From: Pyrobaculum islandicum DSM 4184
GTDB taxonomy: Archaea; Thermoproteota; Thermoprotei; Thermoproteales; Thermoproteaceae
NCBI RefSeq assembly: GCF_000015205.1
Contig: NC_008701.1
Location: forward strand, 1,243,436-1,307,435
Direction: 5' to 3'
DNA: 64,000 nt
The position numbers and the translations under genes are program-made. The notes below the pieces were generated by a model. It was given only the letters and a program-made list of their open reading frames with translations, was not told where the DNA came from and searched no databases. Numbering within the stretch: position 1 is the stretch's first letter; the number at the start of each line of letters is the position of its first letter. This document shows, in pieces, positions 1-11,183 of this stretch.

Positions 1-288
1 CTTGGCGGCGACATGGAGCGGCTTGCGGTAGCTACAACCCGCTGGATTGTGGAGGACAAGTCAGCTGACTTCCTAGGGTTAATGAGGGAGGTGGGAGTGA
101 GGAGGATATATATCTCAAAGACGTCTTTCGCTACTTCTAGATGCAGAGGGCTTAGGGCCTATGAGAGAGGCTATGTCAAAGAGGGCGTGGCCATGGGCTA
201 CGCCCTGTGGCATGCCGAAACAAAAGGCGTGGACCCCCTGCCCCATGTTGAAGCCGAGCTAGAGAGGTTAGGCTCATGTTTCGCCTAG
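1..288 (+). CDS. cobT: CobT, NaMN-dependent phosphoribosyltransferase (3' part)
   Basis: C-terminal piece of the archaeal CobT-type enzyme, which activates the lower-ligand base of cobalamin by transferring ribose phosphate from nicotinate mononucleotide. The reading frame is open from base 1, so the start lies outside the window. The visible part carries family-like signatures: TTRWIVEDKSAD near the left edge and LRAYERGYVKEGVAMG near the middle, where the archaeal family has a KEGVGAGG-type motif. The stop overlaps the start of cobD by 13 bases, and cobS follows with another overlap, so the three genes form a translationally coupled B12 operon. The function is inferred from motifs plus neighbours; the N-terminal half cannot be judged. 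Confidence 0.8.
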   Translation, partial: LGGDMERLAVATTRWIVEDKSADFLGLMREVGVRRIYISKTSFATSRCRGLRAYERGYVKEGVAMGYALWHAETKGVDPLPHVEAELERLGSCFA

Positions 289-1202
289 ATGTCCACGGCG
301 GCTCTACCTGGGCCGAGGAGGTCCGCTATGACTTTTCGGACAATTCCAACCCCATAGGACCGCCCCCCGGGCTTGAGGAGGCCCTTGTCCAAGCGGCGGC
401 GCGGGGGGTCCACAGGAGGTTCCCTGCACACCTCGCCGAGGAGGTGCTCCGAGAGTACGAGGGGGTTGAGGTGACTCTCTTCAATGGGGCGACGGAGGCC
501 CTGCTCTATGCCCTACTCGACCTAAGACCCCGTAGGCTGTTGGTGGCGTGGCCCAGCTACGGCGACTACGAGCGAATTGCCCGCCTCCTGGGCGTCCCGG
601 CCGTGAGGGTGCCCCCTCCCCTCCTGGAGAGGGAGGCGCGGCCTGGTGATGTCGCTATCCTCTGCAACCCCAACAACCCAACTGGCTTCTACATGCCAAG
701 AGACGCCGTCCTCGACCTCGCCGGGAGGCTGAGGAGGAGGGGGGCGTTTCTCCTCGTAGACGAGTCCTTCATGGAATTCGCGGGAGGCAAGTCGGCGGCT
801 CCGGATCTGCCCGTGGTGAAGTCCTACGGCAAGTTTCTAGCCACCCCTGGCTTGAGAATCGGCGCTCTCTTGTATAAACACAGAGACCCCCCGCCCTGGA
901 GGATAAACAGCATAGCTGACTACGCAATATACCACACAGGTGCCGAGTTTCTACGCGCCCACAGAGAAAAGACGGTAGCCTACGTGAGGGAGGAGGGGGC
1001 TAGAGTTCAAGCGGCCATCTCCAGGTGTGTAAAGACTCTCCCCACCTCGGTTCACTTCCAAGTGGTGTTTGGGCCGCCTCCCCCCGGCGTGAAGGTGAGG
1101 CCTCTCTGGGACAAGGGGATAGCGGGATTTAGGTACTCGCTGAGGAGGCCTCCCGAGAACGACGTGTTGATAGAGGCGGTATGCGGTGTCTCAAGGCGGT
1201 AG
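276..1202 (+). CDS. cobD: CobD, L-threonine-O-3-phosphate decarboxylase
   Basis: PLP enzyme of aminotransferase fold class I, related to histidinol-phosphate aminotransferase. In B12 synthesis CobD decarboxylates threonine phosphate to the aminopropanol phosphate linker. Visible motifs are NPNNPTG (residues 131-137), DESFMEF (162-168), the expected Schiff-base lysine K186 in SYGKF, and PGLRIG (191-196). At 308 residues it is a little shorter than typical CobD. The ATG at 276 lies inside the end of cobT, and the stop at 1202 lies inside cobS. The alternative, a histidinol-phosphate aminotransferase, is disfavoured by the B12 neighbours. Its substrate would have to come from a threonine kinase; a candidate kinase domain is fused to CobY at 3485-4321. 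Confidence 0.85.
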   Translation: MFRLDVHGGSTWAEEVRYDFSDNSNPIGPPPGLEEALVQAAARGVHRRFPAHLAEEVLREYEGVEVTLFNGATEALLYALLDLRPRRLLVAWPSYGDYERIARLLGVPAVRVPPPLLEREARPGDVAILCNPNNPTGFYMPRDAVLDLAGRLRRRGAFLLVDESFMEFAGGKSAAPDLPVVKSYGKFLATPGLRIGALLYKHRDPPPWRINSIADYAIYHTGAEFLRAHREKTVAYVREEGARVQAAISRCVKTLPTSVHFQVVFGPPPPGVKVRPLWDKGIAGFRYSLRRPPENDVLIEAVCGVSRR

Positions 1203-1864
1203 TGGCCTTCTTTACCGCCCTCCCAGTCGGCGGGGCCGAGCTGGACTTCTCCTGTATTTGGGCCACCCCCTATCTGGCGGGGCTAATGGTGGGGGGCGCC
1301 GGGGGAGCCGTCTACTTCCTCACCCACAGCCCTGCGGCCGCCTACGCCGCTCTCCTCTTGGCCACCGGTCTCCACCACCTGGACGGCCTTGCTGACGTGG
1401 GAGATGCGCTGATGGTGAGGGATAGAGAGAGGGCGCGGCGGGTGTTGGAGGATCCTAGGAGGGGCGTTGGCGGGATATTCGCCGTGGTAGCCCTCTTTGT
1501 GCTTGCGGCCAGCGCGAGACCAGAGAGCTGGCTTGACTACATAGTAACTGACCTCTATTCAAAAGCGTTGGCCCTCGTCGTAGCTGCCTACTCAAAGCCG
1601 TTTAAGGAGGGGCTCGGTTCTCTTTTCATCGTCTCTGCAAAACGCCAATGGCCAGCCGCCCTACCAGCTCTCGCTGTTGCTGCTTGGCTCCACCCAGCGG
1701 CCTTTCTTGCCGCAACAGTACTTTCGCTATTCTTCTATGTAGCCGCTTACAAACATTTGGGTGGTGCAAACGGCGACCTTCTAGGCGCTCTGCTGGAGGT
1801 CACAAGGGCGCTCTATCTGGCAACAGTTGACCTTAGCACATCCCTTATAAATGGGCTCTTCTAA
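1181..1864 (+). CDS. cobS: CobS, adenosylcobinamide-GDP ribazoletransferase
   Basis: Integral membrane enzyme of the last joining step of cobalamin synthesis: it condenses adenosylcobinamide-GDP with alpha-ribazole (or its phosphate). The family hallmark HHLDGLADVGDAL spans residues 65-77 and the N-terminal signature FFTALPVGG lies near residues 10-18. Several hydrophobic segments follow (about 28-48, 52-63, 95-112, 155-190). At 227 residues it is near the usual size. It overlaps cobD by 22 bases, so it is translated from the same message. Nothing looks damaged. Confidence 0.9.
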   Translation: MRCLKAVVAFFTALPVGGAELDFSCIWATPYLAGLMVGGAGGAVYFLTHSPAAAYAALLLATGLHHLDGLADVGDALMVRDRERARRVLEDPRRGVGGIFAVVALFVLAASARPESWLDYIVTDLYSKALALVVAAYSKPFKEGLGSLFIVSAKRQWPAALPALAVAAWLHPAAFLAATVLSLFFYVAAYKHLGGANGDLLGALLEVTRALYLATVDLSTSLINGLF

Positions 1865-2142: not shown

Positions 2143-3018
2143 GTGGATCCCATAGCGTTGGCCCTCGCCCTCGCTCTTGAGACTTTAGACGTGCCCGCGA
2201 GGTGGCGCGGTTACCTAGTCACGAGGCTTATCCACCCGGTACTCCACCCGGTGGCTATTATATATAAGGCTGCCTCTCCCCTTGCGAGACCAGGTGGGTA
2301 CACGCGCGGCCTCGCTGTACTTGCTGTAGGTCTCGCCGTGGGGCTGGCGCCTGCTCTTTTAGCAGTCTTGGCTAAGCCACATTTAGGTATTCTCGGCTCG
2401 TTACTAGAGGGCTATCTCCTCAAGCTTGCCTTTGGCGTCGCCCACATCATATATCCCTGTAGCCGTAGTAATGATCTGCGATGGGTAGCGCAACAATTTG
2501 TGAGGAGAGATCTCTCAACGGCTTCTGATGGACATGTGAGATCTGCATGTTTAGAGGCAGCTGCTGAGTCTCTCGTCGACTCTTACATTTCTCCGTTGAT
2601 GTGGTACGCTTTCCTCGGCCTGCCCGGGGCGTGGCTTCAGAGAGCCGTCAATACGTTAGATGGGTTGGTGGGATTTCCCTACTTCGGCAGAGCGGGGGCT
2701 CCCGCCGCCTATCTAGACACAGCTCTTAACTATATCCCGGCGAGATTAGCCGCCTTATGCATAATTGCAGTAGCCGGTTGGTGGAGTCCCGAGGTCCTCT
2801 CCCACAGAAGAAGAGTTGTCAGTAGAAACGCCGGGTGGCCTATTGCAGCGCTTGCCTCAGCGCTTGGAGTTGTCTTAGAAAAGTCGGGGAGCTACGCAGT
2901 GGGAGTGGGCGGCCTCCCCACGCTTTTTGACGTGGCACGCGGCCTCTCGATTATTTCCAAGGCGGCGGCAGTTTTTATCCTCCTCACCAGTCCAGCCCTT
3001 TTACCCCCACTCTCTTAG
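2143..3018 (+). CDS. cbiB: CbiB, adenosylcobinamide-phosphate synthase
   Basis: Membrane protein expected to attach aminopropanol phosphate to adenosylcobyric acid. The start is a GTG at 2143, preceded by a TATA-like TTTTTAAC at the right distance. The 291-residue product is strongly hydrophobic, with segments near 50-75 and 85-100 and others toward the C-terminus. The family-like short motif HPVLHPVAI lies near residues 31-39, and a TLDGLVGFPYFGRAG stretch (about 170-184) resembles the conserved DxxVGYK region of CbiB. The last 35 bases overlap the convergent cobA gene. The assignment rests on the partial motifs and on sitting in a B12 block. Lower similarity than its neighbours leaves some doubt. 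Confidence 0.75.
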   Translation: MDPIALALALALETLDVPARWRGYLVTRLIHPVLHPVAIIYKAASPLARPGGYTRGLAVLAVGLAVGLAPALLAVLAKPHLGILGSLLEGYLLKLAFGVAHIIYPCSRSNDLRWVAQQFVRRDLSTASDGHVRSACLEAAAESLVDSYISPLMWYAFLGLPGAWLQRAVNTLDGLVGFPYFGRAGAPAAYLDTALNYIPARLAALCIIAVAGWWSPEVLSHRRRVVSRNAGWPIAALASALGVVLEKSGSYAVGVGGLPTLFDVARGLSIISKAAAVFILLTSPALLPPLS

Positions 3019-3445
3019 AGTAGTAGTGTCTAACCGCCTCCACCCTGGATATCAAGTCAGCCACCTGATATAGCTCTGGGTATTCAAAATCGCCAGTGAG
3101 TATGAAGTGGGGTCTCTCCCGGCTCAAGCTAAGGAGGGCCTTGGGATCTATGAAGCCCTGTCTCACGGCGTAATTTACCTCGTCAAGGATAACTAAGTCG
3201 TAGTCATTTGCCCTTGCCAGCGCCTCCTTGAGCACTTCTTCAGGTCTTCTGAGGTCCCACAGGGTGAGCACGTCTATTCCCAGCCTCCTTAGCGCTTTGT
3301 ACTCGCCAACCTCCTCTCCCATGTAAAATGGCGTCTTCATTACGAAGGCCGCCAGCACCCTCATGCCGTGGCCCCAAGCTCTTAAGGCTGTTCCGAGGGC
3401 GGCTGTGGTTTTGCCTTTCCCACCGCCGACGTATGCTAAGATCAC
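2984..3445 (-). CDS. cobA: CobA/CobO-type corrinoid adenosyltransferase
   Basis: Adds the 5'-deoxyadenosyl group from ATP to the reduced cobalt of corrinoids. The P-loop GGGKGKTTAA occupies residues 7-16, the exact form seen in the CobA/BtuR family, and LVILDEVNYAV (about 105-115) is the Walker-B-like element. The length of 153 residues is slightly shorter than bacterial CobA but usual for archaea. It starts with GTG at 3445. Only 39 bases separate it from the divergent cobY start, and this gap holds a TATA-like TTTATATTTAAG that could serve both directions. Its 3' end overlaps cbiB by 35 bases. Confidence 0.9.
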   Translation of the reverse strand: MILAYVGGGKGKTTAALGTALRAWGHGMRVLAAFVMKTPFYMGEEVGEYKALRRLGIDVLTLWDLRRPEEVLKEALARANDYDLVILDEVNYAVRQGFIDPKALLSLSRERPHFILTGDFEYPELYQVADLISRVEAVRHYYSKRVGVKGLDW

Positions 3446-3484: not shown

Positions 3485-4321
3485 GTGAGAGCCGTAATAA
3501 TGGCGGGGGGCAAGGGGAGTAGGCTCGGCGACCCCCAGAAGTGCCTAAGGCCAGTCTGCGGCATTCCGCTTTTGTTTAGAGTAGCGGGCGTCCTCCACCA
3601 GCTGGCTGACGAGATCTACGTCGTGACGACGCCTAGCCACACTGAACTCGTCCAGGCGGCGGAGAGGTGGGGCCTAAAGGTTGTCTACGGAAGCGGCCAG
3701 AGCTACCCCCAAGACTTTCCCATAGCTGCCCGCCTAGCCCCGGCGGTGGTGGCGGCGTGCGACATAGCCGACCTAGAGCCCCGGCACATACAGCTTCTCA
3801 CAGCGCAAGAGGTCTTCGCCACGGCGGTGACGCCGAGGGGCTACGTGGGGCTGTCCTACCTCCCCAGCGCCGACATGGACAGATGGGTGGAGGTAGACGT
3901 GGGCCCCCTCCTAGACGTAGACACCCCAGAGGACCTCGAGGAGGCAGAGAGGAGGTGCCCAACCGCCTACCCCCTCTACGTCGACGTGGCCTGCCTAAAG
4001 CCCCACGAGGAGACCCTAGACGCCGCCCCCGAGCCCCAAGGGGAGATACCGCCCATCGCCGTGGACTACAGAACCGGCGTCGTTCTCGACGGACATCACA
4101 GGCTCAAGGCGTTGCTTAAATATGGGTCGGCCCCAGTCCTCCTATTTGACTACCGGGTGGTAGAAGTGAATATCCCCAAGGAGGAGGTGGTCCAGAGAGC
4201 CCTAGAAGGCAGGCTCTACCCGCCCAAAACCACTTGGCACACCTACCGCGGCAGACACATATCCCAAATCCCAGCCGCCAAGGCGAGGCCAGCCGCCAAA
4301 AAACTCCGGTGCAGAACATAA
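3485..4321 (+). CDS. cobY: CobY guanylyltransferase fused to a ParB/SerK-like kinase domain
   Basis: Residues 1-158 are a MobA/CobY-type nucleotidyltransferase: the loop MAGGKGSRLG is at 6-15 and DVDTPED at 144-150. CobY transfers GMP to adenosylcobinamide phosphate. Residues 164-278 form a second domain of the ParB/SerK superfamily, with LKPHEE (171-176), GVVLDGHHR (198-206) and PPKTTWH (246-252). These match the pattern of archaeal free-serine kinase SerK, not of DNA-binding ParB. The start is GTG at 3485, next to the divergent promoter. Inference: the second domain may phosphorylate threonine (or serine) and supply CobD, since no PduX-like threonine kinase is in the cluster. The linker after LKPHEE is shorter than in SerK, so activity is not assured. 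Confidence 0.8.
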   Translation: MRAVIMAGGKGSRLGDPQKCLRPVCGIPLLFRVAGVLHQLADEIYVVTTPSHTELVQAAERWGLKVVYGSGQSYPQDFPIAARLAPAVVAACDIADLEPRHIQLLTAQEVFATAVTPRGYVGLSYLPSADMDRWVEVDVGPLLDVDTPEDLEEAERRCPTAYPLYVDVACLKPHEETLDAAPEPQGEIPPIAVDYRTGVVLDGHHRLKALLKYGSAPVLLFDYRVVEVNIPKEEVVQRALEGRLYPPKTTWHTYRGRHISQIPAAKARPAAKKLRCRT

Positions 4322-5797: not shown

Positions 5798-6976
5798 TCA
5801 GCTTTTTAGTTGTTTTAGGAAGTGTGGTATGTCCTCTTTTGTTAGTATCTGCACGTCTGCTGGGTAGGTTTTCCGGGGCCGTGTCTTCTTTATCTCGACT
5901 TTGTAGGGGCCGGCTACTGCGTCTACCTCCTCCTTGTTTTTCCAGTAGTATATCTCGCCGAACTTCCGGTAGAGGTGTTCCTGTACCACGTGTTCGAGGA
6001 GGGCTGCCTCGTCGACGGCTCTGGATGTCCACTGCGCCAGCGCCCGGTAGAGCAGGGGGTCTCTGAAGAATATCTTCTTCTCTTTCCTCGGCTGGGGCAT
6101 CCCGCCGGATATCTGCAGGGCGATGCCGACGGCGTATATGTCGGCGAGGAACTCCAGATACTCCCTCACCGTGTTGTGGGAGACCCCCACGTCCTGTGCC
6201 AAGGCGTGGTAGGACGTTGGACTCGGCACTCTGTCCAGCACAGCCGCCACTATGTCCTTGAGGAGGTGGGGGCTTCTGCCGTGTCTATAGGCCTCCGAAA
6301 CCACGGCGTCTACGACGGTCTCAGCCGCGTCGGGGTGTCTGTTTACAGATCGGGGGAATCCGCCCGTCTCTAGGTACTCGTGGAAGGCCTCGGCCAGAGC
6401 CGCCGGGTCGCCGCCGGCTGCCCCAGTAACCTCGGCGTAGGTGGGGAAGTCGAGGGGTAGGACGACCACGTCGCGGCCGTTCCCCCTTCTGCCGGGGAAC
6501 CGTTCCGGCGTTTTGACAAGGCCCACGGTGGAGGAGCCGGTGGCCGTCACCACGGCCCTCTCCAGGGCCCCCACGTCTATGTAGTACTTGAGCACGCGCC
6601 ACCACCCCCTGACCGAGGTCACCTCGTCGAGAAAGAGGTAGAGCGTCTTTGCCCCCCGCCTGGTGGCGCGCCCAAGCACATACTCCAGAGCTCTCCTCAG
6701 CTCAGCCGGCGACAGGATGATGTCTAGGTCTAGGTAGGCCACAGCATCCGGCGGGACCCGCCTCAGTAGCTCCCTAATGAGGAGCTTCAAGCCCGTGGTC
6801 TTGCCCGTCTGCCTAGGGCCATAGACGAAGTTCAACGCCGGAGGATCCAGAGAGACTGCCCAGATCCAACTGGGGACCCAGCGCACCTTCTCCCCCTCCC
6901 ACGCCCGAAGATGGCGGTCTCTCTCAGCCCAGTTGGTCTCAAACCACCAGGGGTTTGCCCTATCCACCACGTCCAT
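5798..6976 (-). CDS. AAA ATPase with DUF4143-type C-terminus
   Basis: Archaeal ATPase of the AAA_14/DUF4143 group, often found in accessory DNA; role unknown. From the ATG at 6976 the product has 392 residues. The Walker A is GPRQTGKTT (53-61), LYLFLDEVTSV is the Walker B, an HTH-like stretch (HALAQDVGVSHNTVREYLEF) lies about three quarters along, and the end YYWKNKEEVDAV is the nuclease-like DUF4143 element with a K-E-DAV pattern. A longer frame reaches 7090, but the start at 6976 is preferred because a TATA-like ATTTTTAAGG lies about 25 bp upstream and is flanked by two palindromes (6975-7026). Confidence 0.75.
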   Translation of the reverse strand: MDVVDRANPWWFETNWAERDRHLRAWEGEKVRWVPSWIWAVSLDPPALNFVYGPRQTGKTTGLKLLIRELLRRVPPDAVAYLDLDIILSPAELRRALEYVLGRATRRGAKTLYLFLDEVTSVRGWWRVLKYYIDVGALERAVVTATGSSTVGLVKTPERFPGRRGNGRDVVVLPLDFPTYAEVTGAAGGDPAALAEAFHEYLETGGFPRSVNRHPDAAETVVDAVVSEAYRHGRSPHLLKDIVAAVLDRVPSPTSYHALAQDVGVSHNTVREYLEFLADIYAVGIALQISGGMPQPRKEKKIFFRDPLLYRALAQWTSRAVDEAALLEHVVQEHLYRKFGEIYYWKNKEEVDAVAGPYKVEIKKTRPRKTYPADVQILTKEDIPHFLKQLKS

Positions 6977-6994
6977 TGTCAAAATACTGACAAT
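6975..6994. promoter_or_regulatory. Palindromic operator 1 at the ATPase start
   Basis: ATTGTCA-6-TGACAAT is a perfect 7-bp inverted repeat that overlaps the start codon of the ATPase gene at 6976. A second copy with the same half-sites lies at 7009-7026, on the other side of the putative TATA box. Its spacing fits a dimeric repressor site. Confidence 0.6.
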
Positions 6995-7008
6995 AACCTT
7001 AAAAATAT

Positions 7009-7026
7009 TTGTCATAAAACTGACAA
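7009..7026. promoter_or_regulatory. Palindromic operator 2 upstream of the ATPase
   Basis: TTGTCA-6-TGACAA, the same half-sites and spacer as the palindrome at 6975-6994. The two centres are 33 bp apart, about three helical turns, and bracket the TATA-like element. Both features suggest cooperative repression by one regulator, perhaps the HTH-containing product itself. Confidence 0.55.
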
Positions 7027-7094
7027 CATAAGAAGGTAGCTGAACGCCGTACTGCCAACGGGCTACACGGCAGACATACATCTGTAACATTGGC

Positions 7095-9977: not shown

Positions 9978-11183
9978 CTAGCCCCCAGTACCTCTTCTCC
10001 GCCATGTCATGGGGGCGTTGTCTCTGTTGTCTGAGAAGCCGCAGGTGGGGCAATGCATTACGCGGCCCCTCTCCTCCGCCATCTTAGCGCCGCAACGGGG
10101 ACACACTGTGCTGTAGAGTCTCTCCTCTAGATACGGCAATCCATACCATTGTGCGAGCGCCTGTAGGCGCTTCCTTAGTTGTCCCAAACCGTCTAGGAGG
10201 TGTTTCCTCACGCCGTTTCCGCCCCTCTCCTTCAACTCCCGGTAGCTCTCGTCTTCCATTGTGTCGACGACTATGGCGGCTTGGTGCTCTCTTGCCAACT
10301 TTATGATCTCGCGGGCGGCGTTTATAACAACGTCGAGGATTACGCCGTAGCGCTTTGTCTCAAGCTTCCACAGCTGTCTCTGGAGATCCAACGCTCTGCG
10401 TGGATCCCTGTCCTCGTCCACACGCGCGAGAGCTCTGCTTAATTGACTTATGTGGGCGTGGATCTTCTCAAGCTTCCGTATCCGCTCTTTCCTAGGAAAC
10501 TTCAGTAGCTTTACGACTCTGCCGTCGGCCACGAGACCAACCTTTATGTAGTGGTCAAGGCGGTTGACATCGACGACGACAAGCGCCCTGGGCTCTATCT
10601 GCGTCACCTCTCTAGCGAATACGAGAGCGACATATAAACCACAGTATGTCTGCTCCTCCTTATCGTCTCTCTTCTCAATGCCCAAATATCCCAACTTGAG
10701 TCTGGCGCCTTCTTCCAACCGCTTTTTAATCCAAGCGACGTCGCTTTTCTTCAGCTCGATGGCGAAAGGCGGTATGCCCAACCTCCGCACTCTGAGGACA
10801 CCGCTCTTTAGGTCAACGAAGACCGCTCTACTCATATCTTTCTCGTTTTCAACCCTAAGTTGCGCATTCAGCGGAATTGCCTTGTGGAACACCACGTCGC
10901 GCCAGAACATCTTGGCTTTATGTACCAAGTACCTCCCCAACCCGTACTTGGGAAACACCTCATCTATTATCTTGACAGCCAGCTCCCGCCTGTCTGGCGT
11001 GAGGAGTCTGTCCAACTCCTCCGTAGTTAGCTTCGGCTCCTCTTGCCCCGTCAACTCTTTCAACAGCCTTCTGACGTACTCCTCCACCGCTAGGTGCATA
11101 CGCGTCACTAGGTCTAGGACGTCTGGACGCTCCTCGATGAGGCGCCACGGTATCTCCACCCTCAGCGTTCTGTATGCATACAT
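9978..11183 (-). CDS. tnpB: TnpB RNA-guided nuclease (family I), altered C-terminus
   Basis: TnpB protein of an IS605/IS1341-type element, 401 residues. RuvC-I is VVDVNRLDHYIKVG, the RuvC-II region is VVDTMEDESYRELKE, the zinc ribbon is CPRCGAKM...HCPTCGF and RuvC-III is the NRDN motif. After that the frame reads MTWRRRGTGG and stops, whereas the paralogues continue with an AEK(R)YWE-like helix. One lost base in the TGGGCGGAG context explains this, so about 20 C-terminal residues are replaced. The catalytic acids remain. No TnpA is nearby. Its 5' flank (11184-11280) matches the 5' flank of the copy at 16395. Confidence 0.85.
   Translation of the reverse strand: MYAYRTLRVEIPWRLIEERPDVLDLVTRMHLAVEEYVRRLLKELTGQEEPKLTTEELDRLLTPDRRELAVKIIDEVFPKYGLGRYLVHKAKMFWRDVVFHKAIPLNAQLRVENEKDMSRAVFVDLKSGVLRVRRLGIPPFAIELKKSDVAWIKKRLEEGARLKLGYLGIEKRDDKEEQTYCGLYVALVFAREVTQIEPRALVVVDVNRLDHYIKVGLVADGRVVKLLKFPRKERIRKLEKIHAHISQLSRALARVDEDRDPRRALDLQRQLWKLETKRYGVILDVVINAAREIIKLAREHQAAIVVDTMEDESYRELKERGGNGVRKHLLDGLGQLRKRLQALAQWYGLPYLEERLYSTVCPRCGAKMAEERGRVMHCPTCGFSDNRDNAPMTWRRRGTGG

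What the first reader, a model, noticed from the sequence alone, without database searches (positions are those of the whole stretch)
3485..4321. CobY fused to a ParB/SerK-like domain: a candidate threonine kinase for archaeal B12
The second half of the protein has LKPHEE, VVLDGHHR and PPKTTWH, as in the SerK branch of the ParB superfamily (serine kinase, ADP-dependent in Thermococcus). CobD in the same cluster needs threonine phosphate, and no PduX homologue is present. The fusion would place the enzyme that makes the linker precursor on the same chain as the enzyme that activates the linker end. Seen: domain order and motifs. Known: SerK activity and CobD substrate. Inferred: threonine as substrate.
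Basis: partly seen in the sequence, partly recalled or inferred. Interest (0 to 1): 0.75.

Follow-up and report, generated by a model that had tools for sequence, protein, structure and literature searches.

The report
Kinase domain fused to B12 enzyme
In heat-loving archaea of the Pyrobaculum/Thermoproteus family, the B12-building enzyme CobY carries an extra domain related to a free-serine kinase, and it is the best candidate for the missing enzyme that phosphorylates threonine to make the linker of vitamin B12.

Summary
Window 3485-4321 (+) encodes one 278-aa protein: a CobY-like guanylyltransferase (about residues 1-157) followed by a SerK-like, ParB-fold domain (about 160-262). A fused-only profile of the second domain hits only SerK credibly in the PDB (7e-8), and its AlphaFold model (pLDDT 91.6) finds SerK entries as its six best PDB folds. 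The SerK catalytic Glu30 corresponds to E175, and DGHHR to D202-R206; both are invariant in 14 fusion orthologues.

The fusion is one clade (support 100/99) in Thermoproteaceae. CobS is present in 14/14 family genomes with the fusion and 0/5 without. The gene closes a cluster holding CbiS (CbiZ+CobZ), CobT, CobD, CobS, CbiB and BtuR. Every step downstream of threonine phosphate is assigned; no PduX-like GHMP kinase and no other credible SerK-like domain were found in the genome.

Short stand-alone relatives elsewhere in Thermoproteota are sometimes fused to, or beside, CysK-type PLP enzymes, which fits a kinase that feeds a PLP enzyme.

Threonine as substrate is inferred, not shown. SerK itself rejects threonine, and the sister family has CobD without any identified threonine kinase. 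AdoCbi kinase, serine kinase and a non-catalytic role remain rivals. No earlier report turned up in the literature searched.

The parts
3485..3955 (+). CobY-like GTP:adenosylcobinamide-phosphate guanylyltransferase domain (residues ~1-157)
   Evidence: PF12804 E 5e-14; PDB CobY 2mzb/3rsb E 3e-6; Foldseek of the whole-protein model, top hit 3rsb E 6e-8; GGxGxR, KC, CD motifs invariant in 14 orthologues
3962..4270 (+). SerK-like (ParB/sulfiredoxin-fold) kinase domain (residues ~160-262)
   Evidence: fused-only profile A4 vs PDB: SerK 5x0b E 7e-8; profile A3: SerK E 1e-22, SbnI E 2e-11; AlphaFold2 pLDDT 91.6, Foldseek top six all SerK, 5x0g TMq 0.70
4007..4009 (+). E175 codon: equivalent of SerK catalytic Glu30 (PHE motif)
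   Evidence: aligned with the position mutated in PDB E30A/E30Q entries; invariant in 14 fusions and 18 stand-alone relatives
4088..4102 (+). DGHHR motif (D202-R206), equivalent of the ParB/SerK nucleotide-phosphate motif
   Evidence: invariant in 32 of 32 aligned domains; aligned with DGHHR of SerK
4220..4240 (+). PPKTTWH motif (residues 246-252), equivalent of SerK PKTTRH near its C-terminus
   Evidence: aligned with SerK 195-226; T250 and H252 invariant in the 14 fusions; the PPK part is lost in the six Thermoproteus-type proteins
276..1202 (+). CobD, L-threonine-O-3-phosphate decarboxylase (PLP enzyme): proposed consumer of the kinase product
   Evidence: TIGR01140 E 3e-38
1181..1864 (+). 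CobS, AdoCbi-GDP ribazoletransferase
   Evidence: PF02654 E 2e-35
2143..3018 (+). CbiB, adenosylcobinamide-phosphate synthase
   Evidence: PF03186 E 5e-46
2984..3445 (-). BtuR/CobO, corrinoid adenosyltransferase
   Evidence: PF02572 E 3e-31
1..288 (+). 3' end of CobT (lower-ligand activation); the gene begins upstream of the window
   Evidence: TIGR00303 E 2e-92 on L090:8738-9721, of which window 13-288 is the end

Best explanation
The protein is a two-domain enzyme of the cobamide nucleotide-loop pathway. The C-terminal SerK-like domain phosphorylates free L-threonine on its side-chain hydroxyl, with E175 as the catalytic acid/base and DGHHR binding the nucleotide phosphates. CobD decarboxylates the product, threonine phosphate, to aminopropanol phosphate, and CbiB attaches it to adenosylcobyric acid. 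The N-terminal CobY domain of the same chain then caps the resulting AdoCbi-P with GMP. The kinase is thus a non-homologous replacement of PduX, recruited once in the ancestor of Thermoproteaceae by fusion to CobY. Shown: fusion, fold, conserved catalytic residues, clustering, co-occurrence, and no PduX found. Inferred: kinase activity, threonine specificity, nucleotide donor.
For: Fold and family: fused-only profile vs PDB gives SerK at E 7e-8; Foldseek top six are all SerK. Catalytic E and DGHHR are invariant in 32 of 32 domains. Pathway: the cluster holds CbiS, CobT, CobD, CobS, CbiB, BtuR and CobY, leaving only Thr kinase unassigned. No PduX among the GHMP kinases found and no other credible SerK-like domain in the genome (E 0.08 at best elsewhere, in a stretch that reads like 23S rRNA). 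CobS is present in 14/14 fusion genomes and 0/5 others of the family; CobD in 13/14, the exception being a fragmented assembly. In G043 the fusion survives only as a frame-broken remnant, with CobS and CbiZ undetected and no close CobD. Family logic: some short stand-alone relatives are fused to or adjacent to CysK-type PLP enzymes, so this domain can feed PLP enzymes, and CobD is one.
Against: SerK of Thermococcus does not phosphorylate threonine (PMC5120207). The fused domains have 24-27 residues between the catalytic E and DGHHR, against 35 in every stand-alone relative, so the first helix is shortened and activity could be altered or lost. In the Thermoproteus branch the PPKT motif has become GVRAT or similar. 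The sister family f3 has CobD, CobY and CobS but mostly no SerK-like domain and no PduX found, so archaea can evidently supply threonine phosphate another way.
Confidence: 0.62

Rival explanations
1. The C-terminal domain is an adenosylcobinamide kinase: fused to CobY it recreates the two activities of bacterial CobU (kinase plus guanylyltransferase) on one chain, with a different fold, for direct salvage of cobinamide. The hydroxyl attacked is that of the aminopropanol arm, chemically the same one as in threonine.
For: It is fused to exactly the enzyme that lacks the kinase activity of CobU (general knowledge of CobU and CobY); this genome has no CbiD, so it probably depends on salvage.
Against: CbiZ, the usual archaeal route for cobinamide, is in the same cluster (as CbiS) and accompanies the fusion in 13 of 14 genomes; the fusion is also present in genomes with CbiD; CobD and CbiB would still need threonine phosphate; known SerK/SbnI kinases act on a small free amino acid.
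Confidence: 0.13
2. The domain is a free L-serine kinase like SerK; CobD decarboxylates phosphoserine to ethanolamine phosphate and the archaeon makes norcobamides, or phosphoserine is used elsewhere.
For: The characterised relatives SerK and SbnI are serine kinases; SerK rejects threonine (PMC5120207); some stand-alone relatives sit with CysK-like enzymes.
Against: Presence tracks the B12 cluster, not general serine or cysteine metabolism: complete relatives without the cluster, such as G029, lack the domain. Norcobamides are known from few organisms (own knowledge).
Confidence: 0.1
3. The domain is catalytically dead and serves as a nucleotide sensor, dimerisation or regulatory module of CobY.
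For: ParB folds are often regulatory nucleotide switches (PMC12704722); the first helix is shortened; the PPKT loop diverges in Thermoproteus.
Against: The catalytic E, DGHHR, Y223, T250 and H252 are invariant over 14 orthologues down to 36% identity, which a dead domain would not need; a Thr kinase is required and no other candidate was found.
Confidence: 0.12

Closest known systems
SerK, ADP-dependent free L-serine kinase of Thermococcus kodakarensis (TK0378; PDB 5x0b-5x0k)
   Same: ParB-like fold, catalytic Glu in a PHE motif, DGHHR, PKTT(R/W)H motif; best sequence and fold match of the C-terminal domain
   Different: No long insert between DGHHR and PKTTRH, first helix shortened, fused behind CobY, in a cobamide cluster; SerK rejects threonine
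SbnI, O-phospho-L-serine synthase/regulator of Staphylococcus (PDB 5ujd, 6nr6)
   Same: Same superfamily; the product feeds a PLP enzyme
   Different: Profile E only 2e-11 and with stand-alone relatives included; ~250 aa with an extra C-terminal part; siderophore pathway; DGVHR instead of DGHHR
PduX / BluE L-threonine kinases
   Same: Proposed reaction and pathway position
   Different: GHMP-kinase fold (own knowledge), no sequence relation; not found in this genome
Methanosarcina mazei MM2060, bifunctional L-Thr kinase / Thr-P decarboxylase (CobD)
   Same: Precedent for an archaeal Thr kinase fused to another cobamide enzyme (cited in PMC9986279)
   Different: There the kinase is fused to CobD, not CobY; the CobD here is only 308 aa; no direct comparison was made here
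CobU / CobP, AdoCbi kinase-guanylyltransferase
   Same: Kinase and guanylyltransferase of the same pathway on one chain
   Different: Unrelated fold (own knowledge); here two separate domains, MobA-like plus ParB-like
CobY of Methanocaldococcus jannaschii (PDB 3rsb, 2mzb)
   Same: N-terminal domain fold and motifs
   Different: CobY there is single-domain, ~196 aa

Membership tests
SerK/SbnI free amino-acid kinases (ParB-like fold) | ParB/SerK fold | tested here: met
   AlphaFold2 model pLDDT 91.6; Foldseek PDB ranks 1-6 are SerK, E 8e-4 and TMq 0.70 for the first
SerK/SbnI free amino-acid kinases (ParB-like fold) | Catalytic glutamate (SerK Glu30) | tested here: met
   E175 aligned with the position mutated in E30A/E30Q PDB entries; invariant in 32 of 32 domains
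SerK/SbnI free amino-acid kinases (ParB-like fold) | DGHHR phosphate-binding motif | tested here: met
   D202-R206 invariant
SerK/SbnI free amino-acid kinases (ParB-like fold) | Kinase activity on free L-serine (SerK) or another free amino acid | not testable with these tools
   needs enzyme assay
SerK equivalog (NCBIfam NF053625) | Score above the curated cut-off (380 bits) and full length (244 aa) | tested here: not met
   20.9 bits, C-terminal stretch only; no insert between DGHHR and PKTT. Not filed as SerK itself
CobY (GTP:AdoCbi-P guanylyltransferase) | MobA-like NTP-transferase fold with CobY as nearest solved structure | tested here: met
CobY (GTP:AdoCbi-P guanylyltransferase) | Score above the NCBIfam cut-off for CobY (NF045495, 250 bits) | tested here: not met
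   27.1 bits, E 2.6e-6; the model describes the methanogen type, so the name rests on fold and cluster
PduX L-threonine kinase | GHMP-kinase fold / homologous sequence | tested here: not met
   no GHMP match in this protein; the GHMP kinases found in the genome have other names
ParB DNA-partition proteins | HTH and dimerisation domains, ParA partner | tested here: not met
   no such domain in the 278 aa; no Pfam ParB_N match for the window domain; no ParA among the cluster genes named
L-threonine kinase of cobamide synthesis | Phosphorylates L-threonine | not testable with these tools
   inferred from pathway completeness and co-occurrence

The most novel reading that the evidence does not exclude
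A ParB-fold free L-threonine kinase, unrelated to PduX, has been recruited onto CobY as the missing first step of the cobamide linker branch in Thermoproteaceae. It would show that the short SerK-like family spread through Thermoproteota is a general toolbox of free hydroxy-amino-acid kinases that feed PLP enzymes (CysK with phosphoserine, CobD with phosphothreonine).
Probability: 0.58. Interest if true: 0.7.

Novelty: new variant of a known kind. Interest (0 to 1): 0.6.

Why it matters
If true, it gives the cobamide pathway of these archaea its missing L-threonine kinase. It would be a second, structurally unrelated solution to the PduX step, and the first threonine-specific member (to my knowledge) of a fold otherwise known for ParB switches, sulfiredoxin and free serine kinases. 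It is directly testable with one 278-aa thermophilic protein. It also points to a large set of short SerK-like proteins, apparently under-annotated (Pfam ParB_N reaches only 12 of 32 members of A3), some fused to cysteine-synthase-type enzymes.

Tried and rejected
Considered that the match might be chance or a general ParB domain: rejected, because the fused-only profile finds only SerK credibly and the SerK entries precede ParB in the fold search. Looked for short stand-alone relatives beside cob genes in other lineages: none in 20 loci, 17 of them short stand-alone copies and 3 the CysK-type fusions; the short copies lie by CysK-like genes or elsewhere. Checked whether the long SerK-like genes of the sister family f3 lie by cob genes: they do not, in the three loci read. 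The extra GHMP kinases of f3 were suspected to be PduX but are pantoate kinases. Genome-contig search with the whole protein found only one short match in a Pelearchaeum contig, not informative. Foldseek on the whole protein showed only nucleotidyltransferases in the 50 rows listed, so the C-terminal domain was modelled alone. GATase_3 hits were not resolved into CbiA/CbiP and relatives of other function, and are not used. Papers: none found that describes the fusion; the crystal-structure paper of SerK (Nagata 2017) did not turn up in the library, so substrate-pocket residues could not be compared one by one.

Full report
WHAT IS THERE. The ORF at 3485-4321 (+) is a 278-aa protein with a GTG start. 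Residues ~1-157 form a MobA-like nucleotidyltransferase domain whose nearest solved structures are CobY. Residues ~160-262 form a separate domain. Alone it hits SerK weakly (E 4e-4), with VVLDGHHR aligned to the IVDGHHR of SerK and LEGRLYPPKTTWH to VKRGEVYSPKTTRH. A profile built only from the 14 fused domains hits SerK at E 7e-8 and nothing else credible. With 18 short stand-alone relatives added, the profile hits SerK at 1.2e-22 and SbnI at 2e-11, aligning the catalytic Glu30 of SerK to E175. The AlphaFold2 model of the whole protein has pLDDT 91.8 and pTM 0.91. The C-terminal domain alone has pLDDT 91.6; its six best PDB matches are all SerK, followed by Noc, SbnI and ParB.

CONSERVATION. 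Invariant in the kinase-like part: P173 H174 E175, L201-D202-G-H-H-R206, Y223, T250, H252, H258, S260. The fused domains form one clade with 100/99 support, so one fusion event is the simplest reading. Two differences from relatives stand out. The spacing from the catalytic E to DGHHR is 24-27 in every fusion and 35 in every one of 18 short stand-alone proteins, so the first helix is shortened. The insert of the long SerK type (about 85 aa by the spacing in three long proteins) is absent, as it is in the short stand-alone type. In the six Thermoproteus-type fusions the PPKTT loop has become GVRAT or similar, keeping the T and the H.

PATHWAY CONTEXT. Upstream of the window the cluster begins with CbiS (CbiZ amidohydrolase plus CobZ phosphatase; NF038002 E 1e-116) and CobT (TIGR00303; its last part is window 13-288). 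Then follow CobD, CobS, CbiB, BtuR (opposite strand) and CobY-SerK. Every enzyme from threonine phosphate onward to adenosylcobamide is assigned; the threonine kinase is not. The GHMP kinases found in this genome are homoserine, mevalonate, archaeal shikimate and pantoate kinase, so no PduX was found. No other credible SerK-like sequence occurs in the genome (the better-scoring E 0.08 stretch reads like 23S rRNA). CbiD is absent, so this organism probably lives on salvage, while other fusion-bearing relatives have CbiD.

CO-OCCURRENCE. Within the family, CobS is found in 14 of 14 genomes with the fusion and in 0 of 5 without it. CobD and CbiZ are found in 13 of 14, the exception being a fragmented assembly (G033). 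A Fisher test on the CobD counts gives p 5e-4, or 6e-3 if a CobD fragment in G034 is counted, but related genomes are not independent. Genome G043, with CobS and CbiZ undetected and no close CobD (80% complete), holds a frame-broken remnant of the fusion. Loss of the pathway and loss of the fusion go together, while a single-contig, 99%-complete relative without the pathway (G029) simply lacks the domain. This argues against a general role in serine or cysteine metabolism.

WHAT THE RELATIVES DO. The A2 profile finds SerK-like domains in 231 of 398 genomes of the phylum. Many are stand-alone proteins of the short type (open frames mostly 130-210 aa); Pfam ParB_N detects only 12 of the 32 members of A3. 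None of 20 neighbourhoods examined contains cob genes. In three (L076, L082, L085) the short kinase gene lies next to a CysK/CysM-type PLP enzyme, and in three genomes (L086-L088) the two are fused in one 573-598-aa protein. This is the arrangement expected of a phosphoserine maker feeding a phosphoserine-using PLP enzyme, as SerK does for CysK (PMC5120207). In the fusion studied here the partner pathway contains CobD, a PLP enzyme that uses phosphothreonine. The parallel is an inference, not a test.

MECHANISM PROPOSED. L-Thr + NTP/NDP -> Thr-P at the C-terminal domain (E175 as base, DGHHR holding the phosphates); CobD makes (R)-1-aminopropanol phosphate; CbiB joins it to adenosylcobyric acid; the N-terminal CobY domain makes AdoCbi-GDP; CobS adds the lower ligand. 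The fusion need not channel the intermediate, since CobD and CbiB act in between; it may serve stoichiometry or co-regulation. The donor nucleotide is unknown: ADP in Thermococcus SerK (PMC5120207); an archaeal SerK-like fusion is reported to bind CTP (PMC12704722).

LIMITS. SerK rejects threonine (PMC5120207), so the specificity must have changed. I could not compare substrate pockets because coordinates and the crystal-structure paper were not available. The sister family f3 has CobD and CobY (~180 aa, unfused) with no PduX-type kinase found and mostly no SerK-like domain, so another source of threonine phosphate must exist there; the GHMP kinases were named for one f3 genome (G018) in part only. 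The AdoCbi-kinase reading, a reinvented CobU, is the most interesting rival. It is made less likely by CbiZ in the same cluster and by CobD and CbiB being retained, but it is not excluded.

VERDICT. Observation confirmed; interpretation partly supported: a SerK-family kinase domain on CobY is well supported, threonine as substrate is the best but untested inference. I found no earlier report of this fusion in the open-access library, which lacks many subscription papers.

Noticed in passing
L086:4607-6367, L087:5981-7702, L088:5928-7724: Natural fusion of a short SerK-like domain, a second degenerate-looking SerK-like repeat and a CysK/CysM-type PLP enzyme (573-598 aa): a candidate one-chain serine-to-cysteine enzyme.
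   Followed up: partly
L076:5904-7270, L085:5114-6483, L082:5996-7622: Short stand-alone SerK-like genes directly beside CysK-type genes; in L082 the CysK-type protein has an extra ~100-aa N-terminal stretch.
   Followed up: partly
L036:2600-3900 (G043): Frame-broken remnant of the CobY-SerK fusion in a relative where CobS and CbiZ were not found and no close CobD is seen.
   Followed up: yes
L100-L107 (family f3): Sister family has CobD, CobS and unfused CobY but no PduX found and mostly no SerK-like domain: its threonine kinase is unidentified.
   Followed up: partly
L101:6732-7598 and L109:6242-7108: In two genomes of the sister family the CobY gene directly follows a 288-aa second MobA-like nucleotidyltransferase-looking gene of unknown role.
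   Followed up: no
window 9978-11183 (-): Protein with CxxC...CxxC and DNRD near its C-terminus, looks like a TnpB/OrfB-type transposon protein.
   Followed up: no
window 5798-7090 (-): 430-aa protein that looks like an archaeal AAA-type ATPase (GPRQTGKT Walker A).
   Followed up: no
L090:2730-5899 (own genome, upstream of the window): Coenzyme A genes clustered near the cobamide genes: phosphopantothenate synthetase, ketopantoate hydroxymethyltransferase, ketopantoate reductase, pantoate kinase.
   Followed up: partly
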